A stretch of 64,000 nt of DNA from Alphaproteobacteria bacterium (GTDB lineage: Bacteria > Pseudomonadota > Alphaproteobacteria > Micropepsales > Micropepsaceae): contig WGNU01000006.1 in NCBI GenBank assembly GCA_016124385.1, positions 1 through 64,000 on the forward strand, given 5' to 3'. This document shows, piece after piece, positions 37,851 to 58,004 of the stretch. The position numbers and the translations under genes are program-made. The notes under the pieces are model-generated. The model did no database searches and was not told where the DNA came from. It saw nothing but the letters and a program-made list of their open reading frames with translations. Each line of letters starts with the position of its first letter. The first letter of the stretch is position 1.

Positions 37851-38279
37851 ATGCCCCTTCACCTCATCAAGCTCAGCGTCGGCACGGAGAGCCTGGAAGG
37901 GTTCGCGGCCTGGCAGACGGAGCGGCTGAAGCGGCTGCGCGCGAAGGACAAGAGGGCGCAGCTCTTTCACCTGACGCGGCAGACGCCGAAGCGGCGCGAG
38001 GAGATCCTTGCCGGCGGGTCGATCTTCTGGGTCATCAAGGGGTTCATTCTCGCGCGGCAGAGCATTCTCGATCTGCGCGCGCAGCCCGATTCGAACGGCG
38101 TGCCGCATTGCGCGATCGTCTATTCCTCGAAGTTGCAGCCGGTTGTGCCGCGGGCGCGGGGGCCGTTCCAAGGCTGGCGGTATCTGAAAGCCGAGGATGC
38201 GCCCGAAGACCTCGCCGGCGGCACGCGCGCGATGCCGGCGGATCTGCGCCGCACGCTCGCGGATCTGGGTCTGCTCTAG
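37851..38279 (+). CDS. DUF1489-like protein
   Basis: MPLHLIKLSVGTESLEGFAAWQTERL...SIFWVIKGFILARQSILDL. Confidence 0.75.
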   Translation: MPLHLIKLSVGTESLEGFAAWQTERLKRLRAKDKRAQLFHLTRQTPKRREEILAGGSIFWVIKGFILARQSILDLRAQPDSNGVPHCAIVYSSKLQPVVPRARGPFQGWRYLKAEDAPEDLAGGTRAMPADLRRTLADLGLL

Positions 38280-39154
38280 TCGGCCTTGGGCAGGACCGGC
38301 GCGTTGTCGATGAGCCGCGTGCCGCCGAGCCGCACCGCCGCGAGCACGCGCGCGGGCTCGTTCAGCATCTCGATGGGATCGAGACTGTCTGCGTCGCGGA
38401 CTTCCAGGTAATCGACCGCGGCGAAGCCAAGCTTCAAGAGGCGCGCGCGGCCGGTGTTGCAGGCCTCGCTTGGGCTCTTGCCGCCTGCGACGGCGGCCGC
38501 GACCTCGCCCAAGACCGTGTTGAGGAAGCCCGCGATCTTGCGCTCGGGGGCCGTCAAATAGGCGTTGCGCGAAGACATCGCGAGACCGTCATGTTCGCGC
38601 AGTGTCGGCGCGGCGACGATCTCGACCGGGATGTCGAGGTCGCGCACCAGGCGGCGGATGACGAGGAGCTGCTGATAATCCTTCTCGCCGAAAATGGCGA
38701 CGTCGGGCTGGGCCTGCATGAAGAGCTTGGCGACGACGGTCGCGACGCCGCCGAAGAAATGCGGGCGGGCCGCGCTCTCGAGCCCTTCGGAGACACCGGC
38801 GACGCGAATCGCGGTCGAGAAGCCGTTCGGGTACATCTCGGCCGCCGTCGGCGCGTAAACGAGCCCCACGAAACCCTGGCGCGCGAGCTTTTCGATGTCG
38901 GAACCCAAATTGCGCGGATAGCGCTCGAAATCTTCGTTCGGCGCAAATTGCGTGGGATTGACGAAAATCGAGACGACGACGCGGTTCGCCTGCGCCCGTG
39001 CGGCCTCGCTCAGCGAAAGGTGGCCGGCGTGCAGCGCGCCCATGGTCGGCACGAGCGCGACCCGCTCGCCCGCCCGGCGCCAGCCGAACACGATCTTGCG
39101 CAGATCCGCAACGCTGCGCGCCACGGGAATCGGAAACGAGGTATCAAGCGGCAT
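38276..39154 (-). CDS. panC: Pantothenate synthetase
   Basis: ALVPTMGALHAGHLSLSEAARAQANRVVVSIFVNPTQFAPNEDFERYPR. Confidence 0.96.
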   Translation of the reverse strand: MPLDTSFPIPVARSVADLRKIVFGWRRAGERVALVPTMGALHAGHLSLSEAARAQANRVVVSIFVNPTQFAPNEDFERYPRNLGSDIEKLARQGFVGLVYAPTAAEMYPNGFSTAIRVAGVSEGLESAARPHFFGGVATVVAKLFMQAQPDVAIFGEKDYQQLLVIRRLVRDLDIPVEIVAAPTLREHDGLAMSSRNAYLTAPERKIAGFLNTVLGEVAAAVAGGKSPSEACNTGRARLLKLGFAAVDYLEVRDADSLDPIEMLNEPARVLAAVRLGGTRLIDNAPVLPKAD

Positions 39155-39302
39155 TAACGAATCAACGATCGCTCGGGGGGATTACGGTTCGCCCGACCTT
39201 AGCGAAGGGTTTCGATCTGGGCTAGGCTTAGGCGCGCTTGGCAAATGGCCGCCCAGGGGCCATTTCGAGGAGGACCCCCTGGGCGTTGCGGGTGTGGACA
39301 GC

Positions 39303-40010
39303 ATGGGACGATCGATCACGCCGAAAGGACCCGGATCGAGCGCGGACGAAGTGGCCGCGTTCGTCGAGGCGATCAAGCACGTGCCGGTGCCGCACCGCGG
39401 CGGGCGGCGGGGGCGCCTCGTCTTCGCGCTCGATGCGACGATGAGCCGCCAGCCGACCTGGGACCTCGCGACACGCATCCAGGCGGAAATGTTCGAGGAA
39501 GTGAGCGCGGTCGGCGGGCTCTCGGTGCAGCTCGTCTATTTTCGCGGGTTCCGGGAATTCAGCGCCTCGCCCTGGGTCGCGGACGCGGCGGGGCTGGGCG
39601 CGGCGATGACGGGCGTCGATTGCCGGGGCGGCAAGACGCAGCTCGGCCGCGTGCTCGCCCATGTCCGCGAGGAGGCGGCGCGCGAGACGATCGCGGCGCT
39701 CGTCTATGTGGGCGATTGCTTCGAGGAGCAGCCCGATCCGGTGCTGGATCTCGCGGGCGAGCTCGGCATGCGGGGCGTGCGCGCGTTCCTTTTCCAGGAA
39801 GGGCGCGATGCCCGCGCGGCGCGGGTCTTTCGCGGCATCGCGCAGATGACGCACGGCGCCTATGCGCCGTTCGATGCCGGCTCGGCGGCGCAATTGCGCG
39901 CGCTGCTGCGCGCGGTCGCTGCCTATGCCGCCGGCGGCATGGCGGCGCTCAGCGATCACGCCAGCCGGGCCGGCGGCGCGGCGATGCGCCTGCTCAAGGA
40001 CATGCGGTAG
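39303..40010 (+). CDS. VWA-domain-like protein
   Basis: RLVFALDATMSRQPTWDLATRIQAEMF...AALVYVGDCFEE. Confidence 0.7.
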   Translation: MGRSITPKGPGSSADEVAAFVEAIKHVPVPHRGGRRGRLVFALDATMSRQPTWDLATRIQAEMFEEVSAVGGLSVQLVYFRGFREFSASPWVADAAGLGAAMTGVDCRGGKTQLGRVLAHVREEAARETIAALVYVGDCFEEQPDPVLDLAGELGMRGVRAFLFQEGRDARAARVFRGIAQMTHGAYAPFDAGSAAQLRALLRAVAAYAAGGMAALSDHASRAGGAAMRLLKDMR

Positions 40011-40045
40011 GGGCGTGACATAGGGACGTGAGTTAGGGTCGGGTG

Positions 40046-40774
40046 ATGCTGCTTTGGATCTCGATCGCGGGCGCGGCGCTGCTCCTCTTCTGGCTGGCGG
40101 GGCGCAGCTATCTGCGCAGCTCGCCGGCCGCCCTCGCCAAGGGGTTCCGCTGGACGGGGGCGGGGATCGCGGGGCTGCTCGCGCTCTTGGCGCTGGTCGG
40201 CGGGCGGGTGCTCGTTGCGCTCGGGCTCGCGCTCTTTGCCTACGCGCTCGCGACGCGGCAGATCGAGACCGTGATGCGGGGCATCGCCCAGGCGTTCGGC
40301 CTGTCGCTGGGACCGGACACGCGCCCATCGGGGCGGCCGGGCCCGCGCGTGCGGACCGAATGGCTCGACCTCGAACTCGACCGGACGAACGGCGAAATGC
40401 GGGGGCAGGTGATCGGCGGCCCCTATGCCGGGCGGGGCTTTCGCTCACTCGCCGTCGATGAATTGGCGAAACTCCAGCGCGCGGCGATCACGGGCGATCC
40501 GCAGGGCGCGCAGATCCTCGAGGCGTTTCTCGACCGCACGACGAACGGCACCTGGCGGACGGCGACCGGAGAGTCCGGCTTTTCGGGCGGCAGCGCGCCG
40601 CTGACGCGGGCCGAGGCGCTGCGCGTGCTCGGCCTCGCCGAAGGGGCGAGCGCGCTCGACATCACGGAGGCGCATCGCCGGCTGATGAAGGCGGTCCACC
40701 CGGATGCGGGCGGATCGAGCGTCCTCGCCGCGCAGATCAACGCGGCGCGCGCGGTGCTCCTCGGAGAGGCGTAG
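40046..40774 (+). CDS. Membrane-anchored DnaJ-domain protein
   Basis: N-terminal TM; C-term EALRVLGLAEGASALDITEAHRRLMKAVHPDAGGSSVLAAQINAARAVL (HPD motif). Confidence 0.82.
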   Translation: MLLWISIAGAALLLFWLAGRSYLRSSPAALAKGFRWTGAGIAGLLALLALVGGRVLVALGLALFAYALATRQIETVMRGIAQAFGLSLGPDTRPSGRPGPRVRTEWLDLELDRTNGEMRGQVIGGPYAGRGFRSLAVDELAKLQRAAITGDPQGAQILEAFLDRTTNGTWRTATGESGFSGGSAPLTRAEALRVLGLAEGASALDITEAHRRLMKAVHPDAGGSSVLAAQINAARAVLLGEA

Positions 40775-40780
40775 CGCCGC

Positions 40781-42346
40781 CTATTGGCCGGCCGCGAGCG
40801 ACCAGTCGCTGTCGGCGACGGCGAGGCAGGCAAGGCCGCGCGCTTCGAGCTTGGTGCAGGCATCGCGCGCCTCGGCCGGCGAGAAGGGGCCGAAACGGGC
40901 GCGGTAGATGGGGCCGTCCTTCGTCGAGAAGGGCGTCACCACCGCCTCGGTGTCGCCGAGGATCGCTTCGGCGGCATCGGCGATCACTTCCACCTGCATC
41001 TGGGCAACATCGCGGTCGCGATAGGCGCCAACCTGGATTCCCCAGGTACGCGGATCGGAACTGGCGGTGCGGCGCGTCGAAGTCGGCGTGTCGCCCTCGC
41101 CGATCTCGCCCAGCAGGGCCGAGGCGAGGCTCGCGGTGCGCACTTCAGAGACATCGCCGCCCCAGATCAGCCGGCCCGGGGCCTCAGCGACATAAGAGGG
41201 CATGGCGCCGGCGTCGATATTGGTGCGGAGCGCGACGCGCGTGGTGCGGGGCTGGGGCACGACCGCGGCCAGTTGATCGGCACCGCGCGGCTCGGCCCGG
41301 CGCGGCTCGGCGACGGTTTCCGCGATCAGCTCGGCCAGCGGATCGGCGCTCGCGAGCGAGACGACTTCGCGCGGCGCCTGCGGTTCGTCGGGGATCGGCG
41401 CCATCGCGACGACGCCCGGATCGCCCGGGGCGCGGACATTGGGGTTGCGCACGGGCTTGGGCGGCGCCGTGACGGCGGAGGCGACCTGCGTGTAGCGGCC
41501 GCGCGGATCCTCATAGGCCGCGACCATCGTCGGGTTCGCCTCGATCTTGTCGAACATCGAGCCCAGGATCGCGCGCATTTCGTTGTCGCGCTCGCGGGCC
41601 GTGCGGCCGCCCATGACGACGCCGATGATGCGGCGCCCGTCGCGCTCGGCCGAGGAGACGAGGTTGAAGCCGCTCGCGCGCGTGTAGCCCGTCTTGATGC
41701 CGTTCGCGCCAACGAAATCGACCAGCAGATCGTTGTGCGTCTCGTAGGTCTTGCCGCGGAACGTGTAGGTGCGCGCGGCGAAGCGATCGTAATATTGGGG
41801 GAAATTCTTCATCAGCGCGCGGCCGAGCGTCGCCATATCGCGCGCGGTCGAGCGTTGCAGCGGATGGGGAAGGCCGGAGGCGTTATAGAAATACGTATTG
41901 CGCATCGAGAGCGCGCGGGCCTTTTGCGTCATCAGGCGGGCGAATTTCGCCTCGCTGCCGCCGATCGCCTCGGCGACGACGACCGCCACGTCATTGGCCG
42001 AGCGGATGATGAGGGCGCCGATCGCTTCCTCGACCGTGATGGTCGTGCCGGGCTTGAGGCCGAGCTTCGAAGGTTCCTGGCCGGCCGCGAAGGACGAGAC
42101 GTTCAGCTTCGTCGAGAGCGCGAGCTTGCCTTCCTGGAGACGCTCGAACAGCAGATAGAGCGTCATCATCTTGGTGAGCGAGGCGGGGAAACGCGCTTCG
42201 TCGGCCGAGCGCGAGAATAGAATCTTGCCCGTCTGGGCGTCCATGATGAGGCTCGCGTCCTTGCTGGCCGCGGAAGCCGGCGTGCCGGCGCCACCCGCTA
42301 CCACCAGGCCGACGACCAGCCCCAACACTGCAACCCAACGCGTCAC
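40781..42346 (-). CDS. D-alanyl-D-alanine carboxypeptidase (peptidase S11) with C-terminal SPOR domain
   Basis: ASLTKMMTLYLLF (SxxK), RSANDVAVVVAE, KTGYT motifs; SPOR-like TWGIQVGAYRDRDVAQ...; start GTG about 42346. Confidence 0.9.
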   Translation of the reverse strand: MTRWVAVLGLVVGLVVAGGAGTPASAASKDASLIMDAQTGKILFSRSADEARFPASLTKMMTLYLLFERLQEGKLALSTKLNVSSFAAGQEPSKLGLKPGTTITVEEAIGALIIRSANDVAVVVAEAIGGSEAKFARLMTQKARALSMRNTYFYNASGLPHPLQRSTARDMATLGRALMKNFPQYYDRFAARTYTFRGKTYETHNDLLVDFVGANGIKTGYTRASGFNLVSSAERDGRRIIGVVMGGRTARERDNEMRAILGSMFDKIEANPTMVAAYEDPRGRYTQVASAVTAPPKPVRNPNVRAPGDPGVVAMAPIPDEPQAPREVVSLASADPLAELIAETVAEPRRAEPRGADQLAAVVPQPRTTRVALRTNIDAGAMPSYVAEAPGRLIWGGDVSEVRTASLASALLGEIGEGDTPTSTRRTASSDPRTWGIQVGAYRDRDVAQMQVEVIADAAEAILGDTEAVVTPFSTKDGPIYRARFGPFSPAEARDACTKLEARGLACLAVADSDWSLAAGQ

Positions 42347-42603
42347 GCGGTGACCCCCCGCTGTCAAAACGCCCGATACGAACCGAACCTTCCGCAGCCC
42401 CGCGGACCCGTTCAGTCCCTTTAGCACACCGTGCGTCGTCTTCCGACGGCACGTGCTCCACACCATGCGTATCTTGTGCCAGAGCCCGCTTGTCTTAAAG
42501 CGCTCCGGCCGGCCCCACCGATCTCGCCCGGGCGTTTCTCGCTCCGCGCGGCACCGGCACAACACCAGGATACACGTTTGGCGCCTAGCCTCCGTGAGAG
42601 GCC

Positions 42604-42619
42604 TTACCAAGTGGTTAAC
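42604..42619 (+). promoter_or_regulatory. Candidate CtrA-like binding site
   Basis: TTAC-CAAGTGG-TTAAC, one mismatch to TTAA-N7-TTAAC, in divergent intergenic region. Confidence 0.4.
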
Positions 42620-42676
42620 GCCCCGTTCACTGTGGCCTTCAGCGTTAACAGATTCTCGCTGCGGCGCACCTGGGCG

Positions 42677-42705
42677 TTGACAAGTCCCCCGACGCTCCAC
42701 ATATT
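42677..42705 (+). promoter_or_regulatory. Putative promoter of phasin gene
   Basis: TTGACA (42677-42682)-N17-CATATT (42700-42705). Confidence 0.5.
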
Positions 42706-42785
42706 CCGGAATGTTGCGGTGCAGCATGAATCGGGCGGCGGCCGCGACCACACTCCCCAGAATGCAATCGAGGGCAAAAACAGCA

Positions 42786-43241
42786 ATGGCAACGAAGGCG
42801 AAGGCGAGCGAGATGGGCGAAGAGGCCATCGGTCAGGCGTTCAAGAATGGCGCAGAGGCGGTGAAAGAGAATTTCGAGAAGGCCGCGCGCAGTTTCGGCG
42901 ACATGGCGACCTACAATCGCCAAGCTATGGAAGCCTTGGTGAAATCGGCGAATGTCGCCACCAAGGGCATCGAGCAGATCAACACCGAGCTCATGACCTA
43001 TTCGCGCCAGGCGATGGAAGACCACGCCGCGGCGCTCAAGACCGTGATGACCTCCAAGTCCCTGCAGGACGCGCTCGAGGTTCAGTCGGATTATTCGAAG
43101 GCGGCGTTCGACGCCTATCTCGGCCAGATGACGAAGGTCAGCGAAATCGTGGTCGGCCTCGCGCGCGAAATCTCCGCGCCGCTCACCGAGCAGGCCAAGC
43201 AATTCGCGGATCTGGTGCACGCGTCGCGTCCGGCGGCTTAA
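42786..43241 (+). CDS. Phasin family protein
   Basis: MATKAKASEMGEEAIGQAFKNGAEAVKENFEKAARSFGDMATYNRQAMEALVKSANVATKGIEQINTELM. Confidence 0.85.
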   Translation: MATKAKASEMGEEAIGQAFKNGAEAVKENFEKAARSFGDMATYNRQAMEALVKSANVATKGIEQINTELMTYSRQAMEDHAAALKTVMTSKSLQDALEVQSDYSKAAFDAYLGQMTKVSEIVVGLAREISAPLTEQAKQFADLVHASRPAA

Positions 43242-43259
43242 CCGCGTTTCGTCGGATGA

Positions 43260-43281
43260 GGGGCCGGCCGTTGCCGGCCCC
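43260..43281 (+). terminator. Intrinsic-terminator-like hairpin after phasin gene
   Basis: GGGGCCGGC-CGTT-GCCGGCCCC followed by TTTCGTTT. Confidence 0.75.
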
Positions 43282-43317
43282 TTTCGTTTGCGCGAAAGCG
43301 AGGGCAAGCTCTCGTCC

Positions 43318-43731
43318 ATGAGCGAGCCACCCTTTCTTTCCTTCGAGTCGCTGCGCCTGACGCCCAAGCCCAATCAGTGCCTGGCGGCACCCGAGGGGCT
43401 TTGCGCGCACGCAAAGCCGCACCTGATCGCGCCGCTGCTGACGGCCGATGCGGGCGCGACATACACGGCCGCGCTCGCGGCGCTGACGGCGCAGCCGCGC
43501 ATGACAATTCTGGCCGCCGACAGCGGCGCGCGCGCGATCGAGGCGGTGCAACGCTCCGCGCTCTTTCAGTTTCCCGATTACGTGAGCGTTCGAATCGTCC
43601 CGGCCGAGGGCGGGGGCGCCAGCCTTGCGATCTATTCGCGGTCAAAATACGGTTATAGCGATCTGGGCGTGAACAAGGCCCGTGTCGAGCGCCTTCTTGC
43701 CGCGATCACGACGCGCCTCGCCACCCGATGA
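43318..43731 (+). CDS. DUF1499-like protein
   Basis: ...[43 protein letters not shown]. Confidence 0.75.
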
Positions 43732-43825
43732 TCCCGGGTTCTTTGAAGTCCCGAAAAACTTCATATTTAATTGCAACGCTAGCGCCTATCGAAGGGCGCG
43801 CAGATACGTCATCCTCGAAAGGCGC

Positions 43826-44149
43826 ATGGCTAAGAACGGACAAGGCTCGAACGGCACCACCACCGGCATCGTGACGAAGACACGGCCGAAGACGAAGAAG
43901 CCGTCGCTCTACAAGGTGCTGCTGCTCAACGACGACTACACGCCGATGGAATTCGTCGTGCATGTGCTCGAACGGTTTTTCGCCAAGGGCCGCGAGGACG
44001 CGGTGGCGATCATGTTGCACGTTCACCAAAAGGGCGTCGGGCTGTGCGGCGTCTATACCTATGAGGTCGCGGAAACGAAGGTGACGCAAGTCATCGACTT
44101 TGCGCGTCGTCACCAGCATCCGCTGCAGTGCACGATGGAAAAGGAGTAA
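43826..44149 (+). CDS. clpS: ATP-dependent Clp protease adaptor ClpS
   Basis: [60 protein letters not shown]. Confidence 0.97.
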
Positions 44150-44155
44150 CGCCAC

Positions 44156-46492
<2,337 letters not shown>

Positions 46493-46494
46493 CG

Positions 46495-47319
46495 ATGGGC
46501 CCGGTGGAGACGCTGCCGGGCGGCGAGGGGCGCACCATCGCTTTCTCGCGCGGCGGCACAGGGCGGACGGTCGTTCTCCTTCACGGCATCGGGGAATCGC
46601 ACGCCTCGTTCGCACCGATTTCGGCCGACCTCCAACGCGACCACGATGTGATCGCGGTGGATCTGGCGGGCCATGGCGCCGCCAGCGCGCCCAAGGCGGC
46701 CGACCTCGCCGCGATGGTCGGCGATGTCGGCGCGCTCATCGCCGCGCTCAAGCTCGACAAGCCGTTGCTCGTTGGCCATTCGCTGGGCGGGGCGGTCGCG
46801 AGCCTTGCCGCCGCGTCGGTGCCGATCCGCGGCGCCATCGTCATCGATCAGCCGCTCGCGCTCGCGGGCTTCCGCGAGGCGCTGGCGCCGATGAAGGACG
46901 CGCTCTTCACCGGCGACTACAAAACCGCCGTCGAGGGCATGATGGGCGCGATGGGCTTTGGCCAATTGCCCGAGGCGCTGCAGGGGCCGATCCTCGCCTC
47001 GCGCGACCGCACGCCGCGCGAGACGTACCTCGCCATCTGGGCCGGCCTGTTCGACGATGAAGGGTTCGCGGCGACCGAAGCGCTGGTCGACAGCGTTCTC
47101 AAGGGTATCACCGTTCCCTATCTCGCGCTTGTCGCGGAAGGCGCGGCGCCCGGCTATGGCGACTGGCTGAAGGCGCGGATGCCGCACGCCATCACGGAAG
47201 AATGGCCGGGCGGGCACTGGCTCCACCTCGCCGATCAGGCGCGCTTCACGGCGCGCGTGCGCGCGTTCGACGCGCTGCCGCCCAAGCGCGGCATCCTCAG
47301 CCTCTTCAAGAAGGGGTAG
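46495..47319 (+). CDS. Alpha/beta hydrolase
   Basis: VVLLHGIGESHASFAPI; LVGHSLGGAVASLAAASVP. Confidence 0.88.
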   Translation: MGPVETLPGGEGRTIAFSRGGTGRTVVLLHGIGESHASFAPISADLQRDHDVIAVDLAGHGAASAPKAADLAAMVGDVGALIAALKLDKPLLVGHSLGGAVASLAAASVPIRGAIVIDQPLALAGFREALAPMKDALFTGDYKTAVEGMMGAMGFGQLPEALQGPILASRDRTPRETYLAIWAGLFDDEGFAATEALVDSVLKGITVPYLALVAEGAAPGYGDWLKARMPHAITEEWPGGHWLHLADQARFTARVRAFDALPPKRGILSLFKKG

Positions 47320-47330
47320 GGCTCTTTCGA

Positions 47331-47414
47331 TCGCATCCTTCGAGACGCCCTTTCGCCTCACCCTGAGGAGCGAGCGTCACGAAGGGCGAGGCGAAAGGGC
47401 TCCTCAGGATGAGG
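47331..47414. repeat. Palindromic repeat family 1, copy A
   Basis: CATCCTTCGAGAC-GCCCTTTCGCCTC (47347-47359) ... GAGGCGAAAGGGC (47388-47400)-TCCTCAGGATGAGG. Confidence 0.85.
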
Positions 47415-47439
47415 CCGGGGAAGCCTCCCCCAAACGACG

Positions 47440-47471
47440 AAAGGCCGCCGGGGCGTCCCCAGGCGGCCTTT
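47440..47471 (-). terminator. Terminator-like hairpin at 3' end of the mini-gene transcript
   Basis: AAAGGCCGCC (47440-47449)/GGCGGCCTTT (47462-47471). Confidence 0.7.
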
Positions 47472-47514
47472 CCATTGCCGATCCGCGTCAGCGGGTCAGC
47501 CGGCTTTCACCGGC

Positions 47515-47580
47515 TCAGACGCGGGACTTTCCGAAGAAGGTCCTGGTCCGGCGCTCACGCGAAAAGTGACAATGAGACAC
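47515..47580 (-). CDS. Putative 21-aa mini-gene (M/V)SHCHFSRERRTRTFFGKSRV with maximal Shine-Dalgarno
   Basis: GTG start 7 nt after AGGAGG within AGAAAGGAGGTGATCCA (complement of 47581-47597); promoter upstream, terminator downstream. Confidence 0.55.
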   Translation of the reverse strand: MSHCHFSRERRTRTFFGKSRV

Positions 47581-47616
47581 TGGATCACCTCCTTTCTGCT
47601 GTTGAAACCCGACTCA

Positions 47617-47645
47617 AGTGTAATGCTGCGGCGCACACAGTGCAA
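47617..47645 (-). promoter_or_regulatory. Putative promoter of mini-gene
   Basis: Minus strand TTGCAC (47645-47640)-N17-TACACT (47622-47617). Confidence 0.5.
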
Positions 47646-47665
47646 TGGGGGCGCGCGGGGCCGCC

Positions 47666-48301
47666 TCAGGCGATCACTTCGGGGGTCTGGCGCACGAAGC
47701 TGGCGTTCTCCGCGCAATCGAGGAGAAACGCCGCGACGTCCGCCCGGCGGATCGCGCCGCCGCGATAGGTTTCGGGCGTCGTGAAGGTGCGCACCCGGCC
47801 TGTCGGCCGGCCGTTCAGAAGGAGGCCCGGGCGCACGATCGTCCAGTCAAGATCGCTCGCCTGGAGCATTTCCTCCGCGCGGGTCTTGTCGAGATACATC
47901 TGGCGGAGCACCAGCGGCCAGAACACGTAGTCGTAGAGCGGGTTCGAGCGGCCGTAGGAATCGCCCGCGCCCAGGCCGGTGACGAAAATCAGCCGGCGGA
48001 TCGCCGCGCGCTGCATGACGGGCAGGAGCGCTCCCATGTGTTCGGAGAAGATCGTCACCTTCGAGAGGCTTGGGGGCGTACCGATGACGCTGATGACGGC
48101 GTCCGCGCCCATCACGCCTTCGCCGAGCAGCGTCTCGTTACGGCAATCGCCCGCGATCACGAGAAGGCGGGGATGCGGATCGCCGCCATTGACGGGGCCG
48201 CGCGCCATCGCGTGGACCGTCCAGCCGCGATCGAGCGCCTGCTCGACGCACAGCCCGCCGATCCCCCGGCTCGCGCCAATGACGAAAATCCGCTTCGTCA
48301 T
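47666..48301 (-). CDS. NAD(P)-binding SDR/NmrA-like oxidoreductase
   Basis: MTKRIFVIGASRGIGGLCVEQALDRGWTVHAMAR. Confidence 0.85.
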   Translation of the reverse strand: MTKRIFVIGASRGIGGLCVEQALDRGWTVHAMARGPVNGGDPHPRLLVIAGDCRNETLLGEGVMGADAVISVIGTPPSLSKVTIFSEHMGALLPVMQRAAIRRLIFVTGLGAGDSYGRSNPLYDYVFWPLVLRQMYLDKTRAEEMLQASDLDWTIVRPGLLLNGRPTGRVRTFTTPETYRGGAIRRADVAAFLLDCAENASFVRQTPEVIA

Positions 48302-48717
48302 GCGATCGCGGCGCGGATTTTCTCGGCCATCGCGGCGAGTTTCTCCGGCGCTTCCATGCCGCGCGCGTGGAGCCGCAGATCGATGCCCGACCAGCGCGGG
48401 ATGATGTGGAAGTGGATGTGGAAGACGGTCTGGCCCGCGTCCGCGCCGTTCAGTTGCGCGATCATGATGCCGGGGGCTTCCGTCGCCTTCTTCACGGCGC
48501 GCGCGATCTTCTGGGTGGTCGCGATGGTGGCGGCGAGCGCGTCGGGCGTCAGGTCGAAGAGGTCCTCCGCCTTCGCCTTGGGCACGACGAGCGTGTGGCC
48601 CTCGGCTTGCGGCATGATGTCCATGAAGGCGAGGGTCGATTCATCCTCGAACACTTTGTGGCAGGGCATCTCGCCCCGCAGGATCTTCGCAAAGACGTTG
48701 CCGGTGTCATAGGCCAT
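48298..48717 (-). CDS. HIT family protein
   Basis: NVFAKILRGEMPCHKVFEDE...HIHFHIIPRW. Confidence 0.93.
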   Translation of the reverse strand: MAYDTGNVFAKILRGEMPCHKVFEDESTLAFMDIMPQAEGHTLVVPKAKAEDLFDLTPDALAATIATTQKIARAVKKATEAPGIMIAQLNGADAGQTVFHIHFHIIPRWSGIDLRLHARGMEAPEKLAAMAEKIRAAIA

Positions 48718-48790
48718 GCGCGTCTCCCCTTATTCGCGTGACGCATCGAACAGGGCACGCGCGCGCGCGTCAATTCATGGATGGACACGT

Positions 48791-48822
48791 CATGGATGGT
48801 CCGCCTGCGCGGACCATGACGC
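48791..48822. repeat. Short hairpin related to repeat family 2
   Basis: CATGG ATGGTCCGC (48796-48804)-CTGC-GCGGACCAT (48809-48817) GACG. Confidence 0.5.
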
Positions 48823-48840
48823 GGGACGAAGTTTCCCGCG

Positions 48841-50007
48841 TCATATGTCGCTCTCCTCGCGCCGGAAGGGCGAGTGCTCGGACAATTCCTCGATCCCTTC
48901 GGCGACGGCTTCGCGTTCGCGTTCGAGATAATTGGCGACGGCCGCGCGGAAACGCGGATCGGGAATCCAATGCGCGGAATAGGTCGTCACGGGCAGATAG
49001 CCGCGCGCGAGCTTGTGGGCGCCCTGCGCGCCCGCCTCCACGCGCTTCAGGCCGCGTTCGATCGCGAAATCGATCGCCTGGTAGTAGCAGGTCTCGAAAT
49101 GGAGGAACGGGTGATGCTCGATCGCGCCCCAATTGCGCCCGTAGAGCGCCTCGCCGCCGATGATGTTGAAGGCGCCCGCGATCGGCCGGCCCGCGCGCTC
49201 GGCGATGACGAGGAGGATGTCGTCCGCCATCCATTCGCCGATCAGCGAGAAGAATTTGCGCGTGAGGTAGGGCGTGCCCCATTTGCGGCTGCCGGTATCC
49301 ATGTAGAACGTGAAGAACGCGTCCCAGTGCCGCTCTGTGATCGCCTTGCCGGTGAGGCGATGGAAGGTGATGCCGGGCTCGCGCGCCCGTTCGCGCTCGC
49401 GGCGCAGCGTCTTGCGCTTTTGAGAGGAGAGGCGCGAGAGGAAATCCGCGAAGTCGCGATAGCCCTCGTTCATCCAGTGGAATTGTTGATCCGTCCGCTG
49501 AAGATAGCCGAGATCGGCGGCCGCCTCCCACTCCGCGCGGGTTGGGAAATTGATGTGGGCGGAGGAGACCTTCGTCTGCTCGGTGAGGGCGCGCAGACCC
49601 TCCAGCAGCAAGGCGGTGAGTTCGCCCGCACGGGATTGATCGGCGATGAGAAGGCGCGGGCCCGTCACCGGCGTGAAGGGAACGGCGGAGAGGAGCTTGG
49701 GGTAATAGCGCCCGCCCGCGCGCTCCCAGGCATCCGCCCAGGCATAGTCGAAGACGTATTCGCCGTAGGAATGCCCCTTCACGTAGAGCGGCAGGGCGGC
49801 GAGGAGCGTTTCTCCCTCGCGGGCGAGGAGATGCATGGGCTGCCAGCCATTGCGGGCGGTGGCGGCGCCGGAATCCTCGCAGGCGCGCAAAAAAGCGTGG
49901 CTGAGGAAGGGATTGCGGGTCGCGGCGTCAGGCATCGCGCAGGCGTTCCAGGCGCCTTCCTCGATCTCGGCCATCCGCTTTGCCGTTTCGAGCGTGACCG
50001 CCGTCAT
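48841..50007 (-). CDS. GNAT-family N-acetyltransferase (COG3146-like)
   Basis: NPFLSHAFLRACEDSGAATARNGWQPMHLLAREG...FETCYYQAIDFAIERGLKRVEAGAQGAHKLARGYLP. Confidence 0.8.
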   Translation of the reverse strand: MTAVTLETAKRMAEIEEGAWNACAMPDAATRNPFLSHAFLRACEDSGAATARNGWQPMHLLAREGETLLAALPLYVKGHSYGEYVFDYAWADAWERAGGRYYPKLLSAVPFTPVTGPRLLIADQSRAGELTALLLEGLRALTEQTKVSSAHINFPTRAEWEAAADLGYLQRTDQQFHWMNEGYRDFADFLSRLSSQKRKTLRRERERAREPGITFHRLTGKAITERHWDAFFTFYMDTGSRKWGTPYLTRKFFSLIGEWMADDILLVIAERAGRPIAGAFNIIGGEALYGRNWGAIEHHPFLHFETCYYQAIDFAIERGLKRVEAGAQGAHKLARGYLPVTTYSAHWIPDPRFRAAVANYLEREREAVAEGIEELSEHSPFRREESDI

Positions 50008-50226
50008 GCCGGGCGCGCGGCCCCCCGCCCGAGGCCATTGCCGCCGGTCACCCAAGCGACATAGGTTGCCGTTGGGGCGGTCGGCCCCAGGCGCTGTGGG
50101 CACGCGTAACGGCGTTCGGCCATCGGACCAACATTCCCGTTTGCTTGGCGAGGCCGCTCAGAGTAGCGAGGCGGCGGCGCAAAGAAAACGCGGACGTGGC
50201 GACATTCTCGCGGGGGGTAGACCAGC

Positions 50227-51273
50227 ATGCACCGGCTCGACGCGGATGATCCTTGTCCCGCGCGCGACGGCTTCGCGATGCCGGCCGAGTGGGCGCCGCA
50301 TGAGCGCACGCTCATGTGCTGGCCGACGCGCGTCGCGCCCTGGGGCGGCCCGGAAGGGCTGCTCGCGGCGAAGGTTGCCTATGGCGAGGTCGCGCGCACG
50401 ATCGCGCGGTTCGAGCCGGTGACGATGTGCATGCGGCCCGAGGATCGCAGCGAGGCGCAGCTCGCGCTCGGCCCCAGCATCGATCTCAACCCGATCGGGA
50501 TCGATGATTCCTGGGCGCGCGATTCCGGCCCCAGCATCCTGATCGGCCCCGGCGGGCGCCGCGCGGGCGTCGCGTGGCAGTTCAACGCGTGGGGCAACAA
50601 ATACATCCCCTACCGGGCGGACGCAGCGTTCGCGGGCGCGCTGGTGGAACAGATGGGCCTGCCGCTCTACCGCGCGCCGCTCGTCTGCGAGGGCGGGGCG
50701 ATCCATGTGGACGGCGAGGGTACGCTCATGACGACCGAGCAATGCCTCCTCAACGAGAACCGCAACCCCGAACTCACGCGCCAGCAGGTGGAGGAGCGGC
50801 TCGCGCTCTATTGCGGTGTCTTGCGCGTGATCTGGCTGGGCGAGGGGTTTGCCGACACCGAAACCGATGGCCACGTGGACGAGATCGCAGCCTTCGTCGC
50901 GCCGGGCCGTGTGATCGTTGGCGTGCATGACGACAAGTCCCATCCAAACTACGCGCCGTGCCTGGAGGCGGTGCGGCGCTTGTCTGAGGCGCGGGACGGC
51001 CGGGGGCGGTCAATCGAGGTGTTCGAGGTGAAGCAGCCGCGGGCGCGGAAGCGTCATGACGGGAGCCTGCTCGAGGCGTCCTACGTCAATTTCTATCTCT
51101 GCAACGGGGCGGTGATCGCGCCGGCGTTCGGCGATCCCCAGGACGACGCGGCGGGCGATCTTCTGGCCGCGCTCTTTCCCGAGCGCGACATCGTGCAGAT
51201 CGATGTGCGCGCGATCGCCGAAGGCGGTGGCGGGCTTCACTGCATCACGCAGCAAGTGCCCAAGGGCACGTGA
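50227..51273 (+). CDS. aguA: Agmatine deiminase
   Basis: MPAEWAPHERTLMCWPTR...DDSWARDSGP...CEGGAIHVDGEGTLMTTEQCLLNENRNP. Confidence 0.95.
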   Translation: MHRLDADDPCPARDGFAMPAEWAPHERTLMCWPTRVAPWGGPEGLLAAKVAYGEVARTIARFEPVTMCMRPEDRSEAQLALGPSIDLNPIGIDDSWARDSGPSILIGPGGRRAGVAWQFNAWGNKYIPYRADAAFAGALVEQMGLPLYRAPLVCEGGAIHVDGEGTLMTTEQCLLNENRNPELTRQQVEERLALYCGVLRVIWLGEGFADTETDGHVDEIAAFVAPGRVIVGVHDDKSHPNYAPCLEAVRRLSEARDGRGRSIEVFEVKQPRARKRHDGSLLEASYVNFYLCNGAVIAPAFGDPQDDAAGDLLAALFPERDIVQIDVRAIAEGGGGLHCITQQVPKGT

Positions 51274-51276
51274 GGC

Positions 51277-51990
51277 TTACGCGGTCTGGCGGGCGATCGC
51301 CTCTTCGAGTTCCTGCTGGCGGGCCTTCTTCTCGCGGTACATCGCGCGGTCGGCGCGCATCATGAGATCGCTCGCCTCCGCGCCCGGGCCGTAGGAGACG
51401 ACGCCGACGCTCGCGCGCATCGGCAAGCGGACGCCATTGAAGAGCACGCTCGCCGTGTTGAGCGCCGTGCGCAGGCGCCCCATCGAGTGGCGGAGGGCGT
51501 GCGTGTCGGCGCGCACGAAGAGGACGGCGAACTCATCGCCGCCGAGGCGCGCGGCGAAATCGGTCGAGCGGATCTTGTCCTTCAGGAGCGCCGCGACGTT
51601 CTTCAGGAGATGGTCGCCCGCGGCGTGGCCGTAGGTGTCGTTGACGTATTTGAACTCGTCGAGATCGATATAGGCGAGAAGCCCGTGCTCGCGGTGGCGC
51701 TTGGCGTTGGCGAGCGTGCGCACGAGCGCGTCGTTGAAGCCGCGCCGGTTAAGGAGGGTCGTCAATTCATCGGTGACGCTCAAGGCTTCGAGCATCGCGA
51801 GGCGCTCGGCCTGTTCGGCGAGGCGCTGCTCGGTTGCGCCGGCGTAGCTGAGGATCTTCGACATGATGGCGAAGCTGCGCGGGGCATCGATGCCCTCGGC
51901 GCGCAGCTCGCCCCAGAAATCCTGGGCAAGGCGGTTGAGCTCGGCGAGGCCCGGCGTGCGCTCGGCAGCGGGGCGGCGGTCACGGCTCAT
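51277..51990 (-). CDS. GGDEF-domain diguanylate cyclase-like protein
   Basis: LSVTDELTTLLNRRGFNDALVR...KSTDFAARLGGDEFAVLF-like (RLGGDEF); start MSRDRRP at 51990. Confidence 0.88.
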   Translation of the reverse strand: MSRDRRPAAERTPGLAELNRLAQDFWGELRAEGIDAPRSFAIMSKILSYAGATEQRLAEQAERLAMLEALSVTDELTTLLNRRGFNDALVRTLANAKRHREHGLLAYIDLDEFKYVNDTYGHAAGDHLLKNVAALLKDKIRSTDFAARLGGDEFAVLFVRADTHALRHSMGRLRTALNTASVLFNGVRLPMRASVGVVSYGPGAEASDLMMRADRAMYREKKARQQELEEAIARQTA

Positions 51991-52253
51991 GCGAGATCCC
52001 TTTCGACGGACTGGCTCGCAAGAGATCAGCAACCCCTGTGCCAGCGTGCCGCAGGGCGGGCGGTCGGATTTCCGCCGCATCGCGGGCCCGGCGGGGCAGG
52101 AATTGCCGGGCCGGAGTTGCCGCTCGGGCATTCGCGGCGGGGCGGGCAACGGGGCTTGGCGCCGCCTTCAAACCGCCGTTTTGCTCGTGCTTCGTTAGGA
52201 ATGGGCCCCTAGAGTAGCGGCCGCTTTTCGTTCCTTCGCCCAAGAGGTGTCAG

Positions 52254-53066
52254 ATGGCGTTCGCGAAATCCGTGGGGCCCGTCCTTCTCGCCGCGATCCT
52301 CGTGGCTCCCCCGGCCTTCGCGGGCGCGATGGTGCCGCATCGCGCCTCCTACGATATCCGCCTGAAGGAGGCGAAATGGGGCGCGGGCGTGACGGGCGTG
52401 ACCGGGCGGCTGGTCATCGAGTTCAATGACGCGTGCGACGGCTATACGCTCAATCAGCGGTTCGTGACGCAAATGCAGGATTCGGACGGGGCGGTCACAA
52501 CCAGCGATCTCTGGCTCACGAGCTGGGAGGCCGCGGACGGGCGCTCGTTCCGCTTCAACCTCAAGAACGAAGTCGACGGGACGGTGGTCGAGTCCTTCAA
52601 GGGCCGCGCGGTCATCGACGCCTCGGGCGGGCAGGTTGCCTATGAGGGTGTCGCGCTCGACGAGGTGACGCTGCCGAGCGGCACGGTTTTCCCGACCGAG
52701 CATGCGTTCGATCTCATCAAAGCCGCGGAGGCGGGCGAGAACGCCCTCTCGCGCACCGTCTTCGACGGCTCGGGCGAGGGCGATGTCTATGCCGCCCATG
52801 CCGTCATCGGCGCGCCGCGCACGGGGGCGGACGGCCTCAAGGGCCTGGAAGGCGTTCCGGGGGCGGAGCATTTGGCGGGCCTCACCGCCTGGCCGGTGAC
52901 GCTCTCCTATTTCAAGACGCAGAGCCAGGCGCCGCTGCCCGATTATGAAAGCTCGTTCGTCATGTATTCGAACGGCATGTCGAGCGGGCTCGTGCTCGAC
53001 TACGGCGATTTCTCGCTCTCGGGCACGCTCAAGGAGATCGAGGTCCTGCCGGACCCGAAATGCTGA
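52254..53066 (+). CDS. EipB/DUF1849-family periplasmic cell-envelope protein
   Basis: Signal peptide; MVPHRASYDIRLKEAKWGAGVTGVTGRLVIEFNDACDGYTLNQRFVTQM. Confidence 0.82.
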   Translation: MAFAKSVGPVLLAAILVAPPAFAGAMVPHRASYDIRLKEAKWGAGVTGVTGRLVIEFNDACDGYTLNQRFVTQMQDSDGAVTTSDLWLTSWEAADGRSFRFNLKNEVDGTVVESFKGRAVIDASGGQVAYEGVALDEVTLPSGTVFPTEHAFDLIKAAEAGENALSRTVFDGSGEGDVYAAHAVIGAPRTGADGLKGLEGVPGAEHLAGLTAWPVTLSYFKTQSQAPLPDYESSFVMYSNGMSSGLVLDYGDFSLSGTLKEIEVLPDPKC

Positions 53067-53073
53067 AGGGCCC

Positions 53074-54330
53074 TTAGCCCTTCATTCCCCGCCCCTTGCC
53101 AATGACCGCTTCGCCGAAGCGCGCGCGGATGCGATCGATCGCGCGTTCGGCGCTGGCGCGGCGCGCGGCGCCGGGATCAAGGAGGCTCGGCTGATCGCAT
53201 TCGGCGGCGGGCGCGAGCGTGGATAATCCGATCCCCAGCAGGCGGTAACGCGGGCCTTCGGGCTTGGCGCGCAGGAGCTCGCGGCCTTCGGCGAAGATCA
53301 CCTCGGCGAGCTGGGTGGGCGCGCCGAGTGACCGGCGGCGCGTCTCGCTGCGGAAATCGGCGCCCTTCAGCTTCAGCGTGATCGTCCGCCCGCCCAGGCC
53401 CGCCGCCTTCGCGCGCCGCGAGAGGCTTTCGCAGAGCGACCAGAGAATGCGCTCCAGCACGTCGTGGCGGCGCTCGTCGGTTTCGAAGGTCGTCTCGGTT
53501 GAAAGGCTCTTGGCCTCGCTCGCCGGATCGACGGTGCGGCTGTCCTCGCCTTTCGAGAGCCGCGCCAGATGCAGCCCCATCTCGCCGTAGCGCTTGGCGA
53601 GCGTGCGCGCGTCCATCGCCTGGATCTGGCCGAGCCGCGTGATGCCGTCCGCCTCCAGGCGCCTGGCGAAGGATTTGCCGACGCCATAGACGATCGTCAC
53701 CTTCTGCTCCTTGAGGAACGAGACGGCTTCCGCGCGGCCGATGACGGCAAAGCCGCGCGGCTTCCTCAATTCCGAGGCGACCTTGGCGAGGAATTTGTTG
53801 AACGAGAGGCCGATCGAAACCGTGATGCCGCAGTCGCGCTCGATCTCGCGCGCGAGTTTCGCCAGCACCTTGGCGGGCGGCAGGCCGTGCAGGCGCTCGG
53901 TGCCCGAGAGATCGAGGAACGCCTCATCGAGCGAGAGCGGCTGGACGAGCGGCGTCAGCGCGCGCATCCGCTCGCGCAATTGAAGCGCGACGTCGCGGTA
54001 TTTGCGCATGTCGGGGCGGATGACGATCGCGTCCGGGCAGGCGGCGAGCGCCTTGAACATCGGCATCGCGGACCGCACGCCATAGGTGCGCGCGACGTAG
54101 CAGCAGGTGGAGACGACGCCGCGCTTGCCGCCGCCGACGATCACCGGCTTGTCGATGAGGGCTGGGTTGTCGCGCTTCTCGACGCTCGCGTAGAAGGCAT
54201 CGCAATCGAGATGGGCGATCGCGAGCGCAAAAAGCTCGTCATGCGCGAGGAGGCGCGGCGAGCGGCATTTGGGGCAGCGCACCGCGCCCGCGTTGGTCTC
54301 GCTCAGGCAATCGCGGCAGAAGGCGGGCAT
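53074..54330 (-). CDS. dinB: DNA polymerase IV with N-terminal Cys4 zinc-ribbon-like segment
   Basis: IAHLDCDAFYASVEKRDNPAL...; N-term FCRDCLSETNAGAVRCPKC. Confidence 0.94.
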   Translation of the reverse strand: MPAFCRDCLSETNAGAVRCPKCRSPRLLAHDELFALAIAHLDCDAFYASVEKRDNPALIDKPVIVGGGKRGVVSTCCYVARTYGVRSAMPMFKALAACPDAIVIRPDMRKYRDVALQLRERMRALTPLVQPLSLDEAFLDLSGTERLHGLPPAKVLAKLAREIERDCGITVSIGLSFNKFLAKVASELRKPRGFAVIGRAEAVSFLKEQKVTIVYGVGKSFARRLEADGITRLGQIQAMDARTLAKRYGEMGLHLARLSKGEDSRTVDPASEAKSLSTETTFETDERRHDVLERILWSLCESLSRRAKAAGLGGRTITLKLKGADFRSETRRRSLGAPTQLAEVIFAEGRELLRAKPEGPRYRLLGIGLSTLAPAAECDQPSLLDPGAARRASAERAIDRIRARFGEAVIGKGRGMKG

Positions 54331-54333
54331 CCC

Positions 54334-55230
54334 TCATGCCTCCCACAGCCAGGCGGCGCCGCGCACGCCGCTCGAATCGCCGTGGACGTTCACGCGGACC
54401 CGCGTCTCGACGCCATCGGAAAAGACGAGCGGGGGCAGCGCCCTTTCGAGCGCGGGGGCGAGGGCGGCGATGTTCGACAGGCCGCCGCCCAGCACGATGA
54501 TGTCCGGATCGATGATGTTGACGAGCACCGCGCAGGCGCGCGCGAGGCGCTCGGAATAGCGCGCAAGGCTCGCGCGGCAGGCGGGATCGCCCTCACTGGC
54601 GCGCGCGGCGATGGCGGCGGCGGCGAGCGCCTCGCCCGTTCGCGCACGGTGATCGGCCTCGAAGGCCGGTCCGCTCAGCCATTGCTCGAGGCAGCTCTCC
54701 TTGCCGCACCAGCAAAGGGGGCCGGGGCGTTCGTCATCGCGCGGGGCAGGCAGCGGGTTGTGGCCCCATTCGCCCGCGATCGCGTTCGCGCCCTGAAGGA
54801 TCTTTCCCTCAAGCACGATGCCGCTGCCGACGCCCGTGCCGAGGATGAGGCCGATCACGCTTTTCGCGCCCGCGCCCGCGCCGTCGCGGGCTTCTGAGAG
54901 CGCAAAGCAATTGGCATCGTTCGCAAGCCGCAGCGGGCGGGCGAGATGGGCCTCCAGATCCTCCTTCAGGCGGCGGTCGTTGAGCCAGGTCGAGTTCGCG
55001 TTCTTCACGAGGCCCGTCCGTGGGCTGATCGTTCCGGGCATCGCAATGCCGACGCTGCCGCGTTCGGCCGTTTCGGCTTCCAAGGCGTTAACGAGATCCC
55101 CGATGGAATCGAGCGTTTGGAGATAGTCGCCGCGCGGCGTCGCCACGCGCCGGCGCGCGAGCACGCGGTTCGCCCGATCGAGCGCCACGCCCTCGATCTT
55201 GGTGCCGCCCAAATCGATGCCGATGCGCAT
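54334..55230 (-). CDS. ROK-family sugar kinase
   Basis: MRIGIDLGGTKIEGVALD; GTGVGSGIVLEGKILQGANAIAGEWGHNPL; CWCGKESCLEQWLSG. Confidence 0.92.
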   Translation of the reverse strand: MRIGIDLGGTKIEGVALDRANRVLARRRVATPRGDYLQTLDSIGDLVNALEAETAERGSVGIAMPGTISPRTGLVKNANSTWLNDRRLKEDLEAHLARPLRLANDANCFALSEARDGAGAGAKSVIGLILGTGVGSGIVLEGKILQGANAIAGEWGHNPLPAPRDDERPGPLCWCGKESCLEQWLSGPAFEADHRARTGEALAAAAIAARASEGDPACRASLARYSERLARACAVLVNIIDPDIIVLGGGLSNIAALAPALERALPPLVFSDGVETRVRVNVHGDSSGVRGAAWLWEA

Positions 55231-55235
55231 GGGGC

Positions 55236-55916
55236 TCAGCTCTTCGCGATCTCGGCGCGGATATAGGCCTCGATCTCGCCCCAGTCGCGGGCGCGCAAGC
55301 GGCTGGCGGGCGCGGGCGGGACCAGCCGGGCGAGTTGCGGGTTCGCGACGTAGTGGATCGCGTGGACGTCCGGTGCGGCTTCGGCGACCGAGCGGATCTG
55401 CGGCGGCAGATCATCGATGAAGAAGACGGGCGCCTTCGTTGCCTCGGCGAGCCGGGCGACCGCCGCGCCCTTCGGCCCGTCGTTCCGGACGAGGGGTGCG
55501 GTGATGCCGGTCCGCGCGAGGTTCCTTGCCCGGGCCGCGCCCGCGCTTTCGGGCACGTTCGAGAGGACGAGCACCACCGCCTCGTCCGCCAGGCGCTGGA
55601 GCGAATCGGCCGCGCCCTCAACCGGCGCGAGCGAATCGCTCATCTCGAAGAAGCGGCGCAGATGGCTGGTCACGGCCTCGGCCTCCAGCGGCTCGCCGGT
55701 CGCGGCGTCGCGCACGTTGCCGTGAATGGCATAGGAATCGAGGGCGAAAATTAACGCTTGGCGCTCGAAATAGGTCATCAGCCCCGCCATGAAGTGGAGC
55801 ACCACCTCATCGGCGTCCGTCACGATCAGCGGGCGGGCGGGATCAACCAAACGCGCCGCCTCGTTCAGGTCCAGCATGGCGACGGAAGGGGGCGCGGGCG
55901 CGCGGGGCGGCATCAT
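55236..55916 (-). CDS. HAD-superfamily-like hydrolase
   Basis: LIVTDADEVVLHFMAGLMTYF (DxD), VVLVLSNVPESAGAARARNLARTGI, VFFIDDLPPQIRSV. Confidence 0.75.
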   Translation of the reverse strand: MMPPRAPAPPSVAMLDLNEAARLVDPARPLIVTDADEVVLHFMAGLMTYFERQALIFALDSYAIHGNVRDAATGEPLEAEAVTSHLRRFFEMSDSLAPVEGAADSLQRLADEAVVLVLSNVPESAGAARARNLARTGITAPLVRNDGPKGAAVARLAEATKAPVFFIDDLPPQIRSVAEAAPDVHAIHYVANPQLARLVPPAPASRLRARDWGEIEAYIRAEIAKS

Positions 55917-56095
55917 CGGCCTCGTAATCGTCTCTTAAGTGCCTGTCGGTAAAGATGTTCAGGCGATGCCCCCAGGCGGCGGTCCCGCCGCCTAAGGGCA
56001 AGGAATGATTAAGGAACTTCCTGTCCAATTCCGGGCAAGGGTGAATCGGCGGTCTCGGTTCTTCATGACCGTCCCGCGCGCGCGCTGGAGCCTCC

Positions 56096-56461
56096 ATGAG
56101 TAAGACCGTTCTGATCGTCGAGGACAACGAGCTTAATCTCAAGCTCTTCCACGACCTGCTGGACGCCAACGGCTACCAGACGCTGCAGACCCGCGACGGT
56201 CTGGAGGCGCTGGAGCTGGCGCGCACGCACCACCCCGATCTCATCTTGATGGACATCCAATTGCCGGAAGTCTCGGGCCTTGAAGTCACCAAGTGGCTGA
56301 AAGAGGACGAGCAGCTCAAGGCCATTCCTGTCATCGCCGTCACCGCGTTCGCGATGAAAGGCGATGAGGAGAAGATCCGCGAGGGGGGCTGCGAGGCCTA
56401 TCTCTCCAAACCGATTTCCGTCGCCCGGTTCCTGGACACGGTGCGGCGCTTCCTGAGCTAA
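56096..56461 (+). CDS. divK: Single-domain response regulator DivK
   Basis: [39 protein letters not shown]; immediately upstream of pleD. Confidence 0.93.
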
Positions 56462-56471
56462 CGGAGGCCCC

Positions 56472-57848: not shown

Positions 57849-58004
57849 AGCCGGCGCGCTTTCCTCCTTCATTGCAGGCGTTGATGGACTCCTCATCCTG
57901 AGGAGCCCTTGTCGCCTCGCCCTTCGAGGCGATGCGCACCTCAGGGTGAGGCGACAAGGGCGTCTCGAAGGATGGGCCACGGGGCACGCGGACGCGGCCT
58001 AAAG
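57834..58004. repeat. 17-bp direct repeat pair (57834-57850, 57988-58004) flanking a palindromic-repeat insertion
   Basis: GCGGACGCGGCCTAAAG perfect in both copies. Confidence 0.85.
57891..57975. repeat. Palindromic repeat family 1, copy B
   Basis: CCTCATCCTGAGGA-GCCCTTGTCGCCTC (57905-57918) ... GAGGCGACAAGGGC (57948-57961)-GTCTCGAAGGATGG; reverse complement aligns with copy A. Confidence 0.85.

What the first reader, a model, noticed from the sequence alone, without database searches (positions are those of the whole stretch)
47440..47645. Self-contained mini-gene with a 17-nt maximal Shine-Dalgarno and a 21-codon ORF
Seen in sequence (minus strand): TTGCAC-N17-TACACT promoter (47645-47617), then AGAAAGGAGGTGATCCA (47597-47581), the exact complement of a canonical 16S rRNA 3' end (TGGATCACCTCCTTTCT). 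A GTG start follows 7 nt after AGGAGG and opens VSHCHFSRERRTRTFFGKSRV*. A strong hairpin AAAGGCCGCC/GGCGGCCTTT lies downstream. The full set suggests an independent transcript of about 170-200 nt. It could be a highly translated micropeptide, or an RNA that titrates the anti-SD of 30S subunits.
Basis: partly seen in the sequence, partly recalled or inferred. Interest (0 to 1): 0.7.

Follow-up and report, generated by a model that had tools for sequence, protein, structure and literature searches.

The report
Translated CC2171-family small RNA
This is a member of a bacterial small-RNA family (Rfam CC2171) found across Alphaproteobacteria that carries an unusually perfect ribosome-landing site and a short reading frame whose ends, but not whose peptide sequence, have been kept by evolution, so being translated seems to matter more than the peptide made.

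Summary
The minus-strand unit at 47440-47645 (promoter-like hexamers, 17-nt complement of the 16S 3' tail, GTG-led 21-codon ORF, terminator hairpin) is an Rfam RF01867 (CC2171 sRNA) match, 81.2 bits, over 47442-47604. Homologues span Alphaproteobacteria: a strict motif is in 49 of 88 class members and 0 of 161 other Pseudomonadota. The ORF is selected: the start codon's first base is A, G or T, never C (0 of 150); 99% of 180 homologues have a 14-36 codon ORF, against about 30% in other frames or shuffles, with all three stop codons used. The peptide is not: rough dN/dS is 1.1-1.9 in every clade. Codons 3-5 form a covarying helix (P1) with sequence just before the terminator. In many relatives the SD/start region pairs with a 16S-tail-like element inside the ORF (P2), covarying at the base before the start codon; in the window copy P2 is degenerate. 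Best reading: a translation-gated small RNA in which the act of translation, not the product, is selected. What it regulates is unknown. The micropeptide reading is disfavoured; 30S titration remains open.

The parts
47617..47645 (-). promoter-like hexamers TTGCAC (47645-47640), 17-nt spacer, TACACT (47622-47617)
   Evidence: sequence; promoter-like sequence at a similar place in many homologues by eye; no TSS data
47442..47604 (-). CC2171-family RNA, full-length match to RF01867
   Evidence: cmscan 81.2 bits, E 1.5e-15
47581..47597 (-). extended Shine-Dalgarno AGAAAGGAGGTGATCCA, complementary to the free 3' tail of 16S rRNA
   Evidence: predicted duplex with the 16S tail -35.4 kcal/mol; (G)AAAGGAGGTG[A/G]TCC conserved across the class
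47515..47580 (-). 21-codon ORF, GTG start to TGA stop (stop included)
   Evidence: conserved start, stop and frame in homologues; peptide not conserved
47568..47574 (-). P1 5' arm CATTGTC (codons 3-5)
   Evidence: covarying helix
47473..47479 (-). P1 3' arm GGCAATG, just before the terminator
47558..47562 (-). P1b 5' arm TCGCG
   Evidence: alignment A1, (77% of cells paired; 4 of 5 pairs with changes on both sides)
47483..47487 (-). P1b 3' arm CGCGG
47580..47586 (-). P2 5' arm GATCCAG (end of SD plus first base of the start codon)
   Evidence: covariation in relatives
47539..47545 (-). place of the P2 3' arm (16S-tail-like element inside the ORF); here CAGGACC, two mismatches of seven, so probably degenerate in this copy
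   Evidence: alignment A1; SD partner in the window copy no better than shuffles
47440..47471 (-). terminator-like hairpin AAAGGCCGCC/GGCGGCCTTT
   Evidence: sequence; stem 100% paired with covariation in relatives

Best explanation
The locus makes a stand-alone RNA of about 170 nt, a CC2171-family member. Its 5' end is a landing site complementary to the whole free 3' tail of 16S rRNA, followed at good spacing by a start codon and a 14-36 codon ORF (21 here). The rest of the ORF lies inside a domain closed by P1 (codons 3-5 with the sequence just before the terminator). In many relatives the start region is also masked by an ORF-internal 16S-tail mimic (P2); P1 and P2 interleave as a pseudoknot. 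SHOWN by comparison: independent unit with conserved terminator; conserved start, stop and frame; no peptide conservation; P1 and P2 covariation; no neighbour gene shared widely across orders. INFERRED: 30S subunits compete with P2 for the SD where P2 exists, and translation of the ORF melts P1 and P2, so the RNA changes between a folded and a translated, open state, and translation rather than the peptide is what is selected. GUESSED: the output, most likely regulation in trans by the exposed 3' half, or occupancy of 30S subunits.
For: Start codon first base A/G/T and never C in 150 homologues while the base before it takes all four letters, again in every match; ORF of 14-36 codons in 99% of 180 homologues against 29-33% in other frames and shuffles, order-specific fixed lengths with exchanged stop codons; rough dN/dS 1.08-1.85 in seven groups; P1, P1b, P2 and terminator pairs 92.1% formed, 36 double changes against 10.1 +/- 3.0 in shuffles; N:N' complementarity 46 of 81 against 25.0 +/- 3.2; SD motif in 49 of 88 class genomes and 0 of 161 others; the main flanking gene families are order-specific.
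Against: No expression, ribosome-profiling or mutant data for this locus. P2 is degenerate in the window copy and not detected in about half of the homologues. Rhodobacterales show a mild excess of synonymous change over all pairs (0.40 against 0.29), so weak peptide constraint is not excluded. Schrader et al. 2014 report that most C. crescentus ncRNAs are not translated (PMC4117421); whether CC2171 is one of the two translated exceptions could not be read. Relatedness inflates shuffle-based covariation tests.
Confidence: 0.55

Rival explanations
1. 30S decoy: the RNA is an antisense to the 16S 3' tail that sequesters 30S subunits or their anti-SD; the ORF merely lets trapped subunits run off and recycle.
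For: Complementarity covers the whole free tail, predicted -35.4 kcal/mol, and is nearly invariant over the class, with many changes keeping G-U pairing.
Against: Does not explain tight ORF-length control or self-masking by P2. Needs very high abundance, unknown here.
Confidence: 0.2
2. Micropeptide gene: a short, fast-evolving functional peptide with autoregulated translation.
For: The ORF is maintained; peptides look alike within orders.
Against: Rough dN/dS at or above 1 everywhere; no sequence beyond Met-Ser shared across orders; similarity at codons 3-5 and at the internal motif follows RNA pairing.
Confidence: 0.13
3. Cis-acting leader or attenuator of the next gene.
For: SD-led short ORF plus hairpin resembles leader-peptide attenuators; in 15 sphingomonad loci one same-strand downstream family is shared, looking like a branched-chain aminotransferase by eye.
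Against: In the window the downstream gene is convergent; orientation of the next ORF is mixed (rough ORF calls); the main neighbour families are confined to one order.
Confidence: 0.05
4. Purely non-coding sRNA; the SD and ORF are incidental and the 5' motif binds mRNAs or a protein.
For: Rfam files CC2171 as an sRNA gene; intergenic, structured and terminated.
Against: Start-codon exchange without C and the narrow ORF-length distribution in one frame only are not expected if untranslated.
Confidence: 0.05

Closest known systems
Rfam RF01867, CC2171 (Caulobacter sRNA; from my own knowledge described by Landt et al. 2008, paper not held)
   Same: Full-length match above the gathering score; same 5' conserved block, P1 and terminator
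   Different: The Rfam entry as shown (type sRNA, nested structure) includes neither an ORF nor the P2 pseudoknot, and its model reaches few members outside close relatives (11 of 290 class genomes over the cut-off)
Dual-function sRNAs such as SgrS/SgrT, RNAIII, rnTrpL/peTrpL (own knowledge; rnTrpL in PMC10117765)
   Same: A small RNA that also carries a translated short ORF
   Different: There the peptide is functional and conserved; here the peptide evolves neutrally and the SD is maximal
Leader-peptide attenuators and uORFs
   Same: Translation of a short ORF changes RNA pairing
   Different: No linked downstream gene across orders; own terminator
SD-sequestering pseudoknot riboswitches such as SAM-II (own knowledge)
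   Same: Start region held in a pseudoknot-type pairing in alphaproteobacteria
   Different: No downstream metabolic gene, no ligand known, no Rfam riboswitch match at the locus

Membership tests
Rfam RF01867 (CC2171) | Covariance-model score at or above the gathering threshold (75 bits), full length | tested here: met
   81.2 bits, model positions 1-159 of 159
Rfam RF01867 (CC2171) | Conserved helix CAUUGUC/GACAAUG before a terminator | tested here: met
   present in the window copy; covarying in relatives
Rfam RF01867 (CC2171) | Expressed as a small transcript | not testable with these tools
   no RNA data for this organism; a transcript was reported for the M. huakuii member (PMC5596092)
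Dual-function (coding) sRNA | ORF under selection for start, stop and frame | tested here: met
Dual-function (coding) sRNA | Peptide sequence under purifying selection | tested here: not met
   rough dN/dS 1.08-1.85; mild constraint at most in Rhodobacterales
Cis leader/attenuator | Same downstream gene, same strand, across members | tested here: not met
30S or anti-SD titrating RNA | Perfect complement of the full free 16S 3' tail | tested here: met
   the 16S of the window's own genome was not available
30S or anti-SD titrating RNA | Abundance high enough to titrate 30S subunits, with an effect on global initiation | not testable with these tools
   needs quantitative RNA and sucrose-gradient data

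The most novel reading that the evidence does not exclude
CC2171 RNAs are a class-wide ribosome-sensing riboregulator. The free 16S 3' tail and an intramolecular 16S mimic compete for one strand, and translation of a sequence-indifferent ORF of tuned length (stop usually 21-29 nt past the mimic) sets the state of the RNA, making it a gauge of free 30S subunits or of initiation capacity.
Probability: 0.22. Interest if true: 0.9.

Novelty: new variant of a known kind. Interest (0 to 1): 0.62.

Why it matters
A catalogued but, in the papers I could read, unexplained sRNA family turns out to carry a selected ORF with an unselected peptide and a complement of the entire free 16S tail. That separates 'translated' from 'protein-coding' in a clean, testable case. 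It would give a small, easily mutated system for asking whether pairing with the full 16S tail can serve as a regulatory signal in bacteria where most genes lack an SD (24.6% of coding sequences SD-led in C. crescentus, PMC4117421). It also warns that Ribo-seq hits on such RNAs are not evidence of a functional micropeptide.

Tried and rejected
A 16S gene end read backwards: rejected, Rfam finds no rRNA in 38000-58000, and the sequence departs from 16S after CCAG. Leader or attenuator: rejected on neighbours. Peptide conservation: rejected. Covariation between the 5' end of the SD and 16S tail variants: not testable, few genomes searched showed a 16S copy. P2-to-stop spacing as a hard rule: left as suggestive, since an unfiltered correlation gave none and a filtered one rho 0.52 with shared ancestry uncontrolled. 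Gap lengths in multiples of three: inconclusive. Phage origin: few IMG/VR matches, several of them host-like Bradyrhizobium-type RNAs. Landt 2008 was not held.

Full report
OBSERVATION. The minus strand of 47440-47645 reads as described: TTGCAC-N17-TACACT, AGAAAGGAGGTGATCCA, a GTG start and a 21-codon ORF ending at TGA (47580-47515), then a strong hairpin. Rfam finds no rRNA in 38000-58000 and ARAGORN no nearby tRNA, so this is not a 16S gene end read backwards. It is a full-length match to Rfam RF01867, CC2171 (47442-47604, 81.2 bits, gathering 75). The RNA folds better than all 200 shuffles (z -3.9). The exact 13-mer AAGGAGGTGATCC is unique in the 2.4-Mb assembly. That assembly is about 74% complete and showed no 16S copy; the 16S tail was read in related genomes as GGATCACCTCCTTTCT.

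DISTRIBUTION. The Rfam model finds homologues in 36 of 61 relatives and 66 of 290 class genomes. The pattern AAAGGAGGTGRTCC-NN-TGTC occurs in 49 of 88 sampled Alphaproteobacteria and in none of 161 other Pseudomonadota genomes (the 88/161 split is my count of the table rows). Named hits span Caulobacterales, Rhizobiales, Rhodobacterales, Sphingomonadales, Rhodospirillales and Acetobacterales. Two hits carry a Gemmatimonadota label and were not verified. The pattern fixes TG and TC but leaves the first base of the start codon and the base before it free.

THE ORF IS SELECTED. In 150 pattern-found loci (the 30 partly repeat genomes already held) the free base before TG is G 83, A 62, T 5, C 0, while the base before it takes all four letters. 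In 180 non-redundant homologues the frame from this codon closes after 14-36 codons in 99%, against 29% and 32% in the two other frames and 33% in shuffles. Within groups the length is nearly fixed (Rhodobacterales 18 in 26 of 27; MSHG sphingomonads 18 in 26 of 28; Bradyrhizobium type 14 in 8 of 8), while TAA, TAG and TGA replace each other. The groups were defined partly by peptide pattern, the Rhodobacterales one also by length, so the all-homologue figure is the unbiased one. This is what conserved initiation and termination look like.

THE PEPTIDE IS NOT. Rough dN/dS for close pairs, leaving out the codons in P1, is 1.08 (Rhodobacterales), 1.23 (sphingomonads), 1.31, 1.08, 1.16, 1.85 and 1.13 in seven groups. 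Only Met-Ser is widely shared across orders, and the pattern used for many loci requires it. One test was milder: over all Rhodobacterales pairs the synonymous fraction was 0.40 against 0.29 expected, a weak sign of constraint that RNA structure could also cause. Several groups have few close pairs, so single ratios are imprecise.

RNA STRUCTURE. Codons 3-5 pair with the sequence directly before the terminator (P1): CAUUGUC/GACAAUG, CAUGGUU/GACCAUG, GUGAGAU/GUCUCAC and GUGAUU/AAUCAC in different lineages. On alignment A1 of 31 relatives, P1, P1b, P2 and the terminator together give 92.1% paired cells against 88.3 +/- 0.4 in shuffles and 36 cells changed on both sides against 10.1 +/- 3.0; sliding the partners destroys the signal. 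P2 pairs GAUCCN(G) at the start codon with an ORF-internal (C)N'GGAUC. That element resembles the 16S tail CUGGAUCACCUCC, and in many relatives a following CCUC can also cover the SD core. N and N' are complementary in 46 of 81 cases against 25.0 +/- 3.2 after permutation, none of 20000 permutations reaching it, including A-U, G-C, U-A and C-G versions. The anchor for this test was the GGA motif, not N', so it is not circular, but relatedness inflates it. P1 and P2 interleave, so if both form they make a pseudoknot. RNAalifold predicts P1 and the terminator but cannot show P2. In the window copy P1, P1b and the terminator are intact while P2 has two mismatches of seven, and its SD finds no better partner downstream than in shuffles. 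The window RNA may therefore lack this masking. Rhodobacterales and the Bradyrhizobium type show other predicted SD or start pairings, not tested further.

CONTEXT. In the window the upstream genes on the same strand look like an NAD(P)-binding protein and a HIT protein (by eye), and the downstream gene is convergent. Across homologues the main neighbour families are shared within orders and not between them, as expected for a vertically inherited independent unit and not for a leader.

MECHANISM. Shown by comparison: the independent structured unit, the conserved full-tail SD, the selected start, stop and frame, the unselected peptide, P1 and P2. Inferred: 30S binding through the full 16S tail, competition with P2 where present, melting of P1 and P2 by the translating ribosome. 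The stop usually lies 21-29 nt after the P2 arm, which would let that arm emerge behind a terminating ribosome; this is suggestive only. The output is unknown. SD pairing extended towards the start codon is compatible with initiation in S. aureus (PMC13009471). From my own knowledge, over-extended SDs can slow the exit from initiation in E. coli. The reading I commit to is a translation-gated small RNA; 30S titration is the main rival.

LITERATURE. Nine held papers contain the string CC2171, of which two concern the RNA. RF01867 is listed among families improved with R-scape structures in Rfam 15 (PMC11701678). A transcript was seen by RNA-seq in M. huakuii (PMC5596092). Schrader et al. 2014 report that C. 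crescentus ncRNAs are mostly untranslated but that two earlier ones are translated (PMC4117421); whether CC2171 is one of them could not be read. I found no held paper describing the SD, the ORF or P2 of this family, but most subscription papers are not in the library.

VERDICT. Real, conserved and ORF-bearing; a member of a known sRNA family with an organisation that I did not find described.

Noticed in passing
window 47340-47415: REP-like palindrome (CCTCACCCTGAGGAGC ... GCTCCTCAGGATGAGG) just downstream of the RNA; the half-site with at most one mismatch occurs 22 times in the assembly, often as inverted pairs about 45 bp apart.
   Followed up: partly
L241, L246, L247 (IMG/VR contigs): Viral contigs with AAAGGAGGTGGTCCAGTGTC before a different, longer ORF (VSSCGSKRMRSGGKVKPGYHKMPNGEVMADS...), so near-maximal SDs also occur before unrelated small genes.
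   Followed up: no
L239, L240, L242, L245: IMG/VR contigs carrying Bradyrhizobium-type copies of the RNA (peptide ..KRCHLA..), possibly prophage-adjacent or host sequence in viral bins.
   Followed up: no
L111, L122, L129, L133, L156: In Bradyrhizobium-type members the ORF segment CACCUCGCUGG can pair either with the SD or with a downstream CCAGCGAG, which looks like a mutually exclusive switch.
   Followed up: no
G047, G273, G266: Some genomes give two or three matches to the family, for example one sphingomonad-like genome with both a CC2171-like and an MSHG-type copy.
   Followed up: no
L062, L088: Two motif hits in MAGs labelled Gemmatimonadota, the only named hits outside Alphaproteobacteria; could be mis-binned contigs.
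   Followed up: partly
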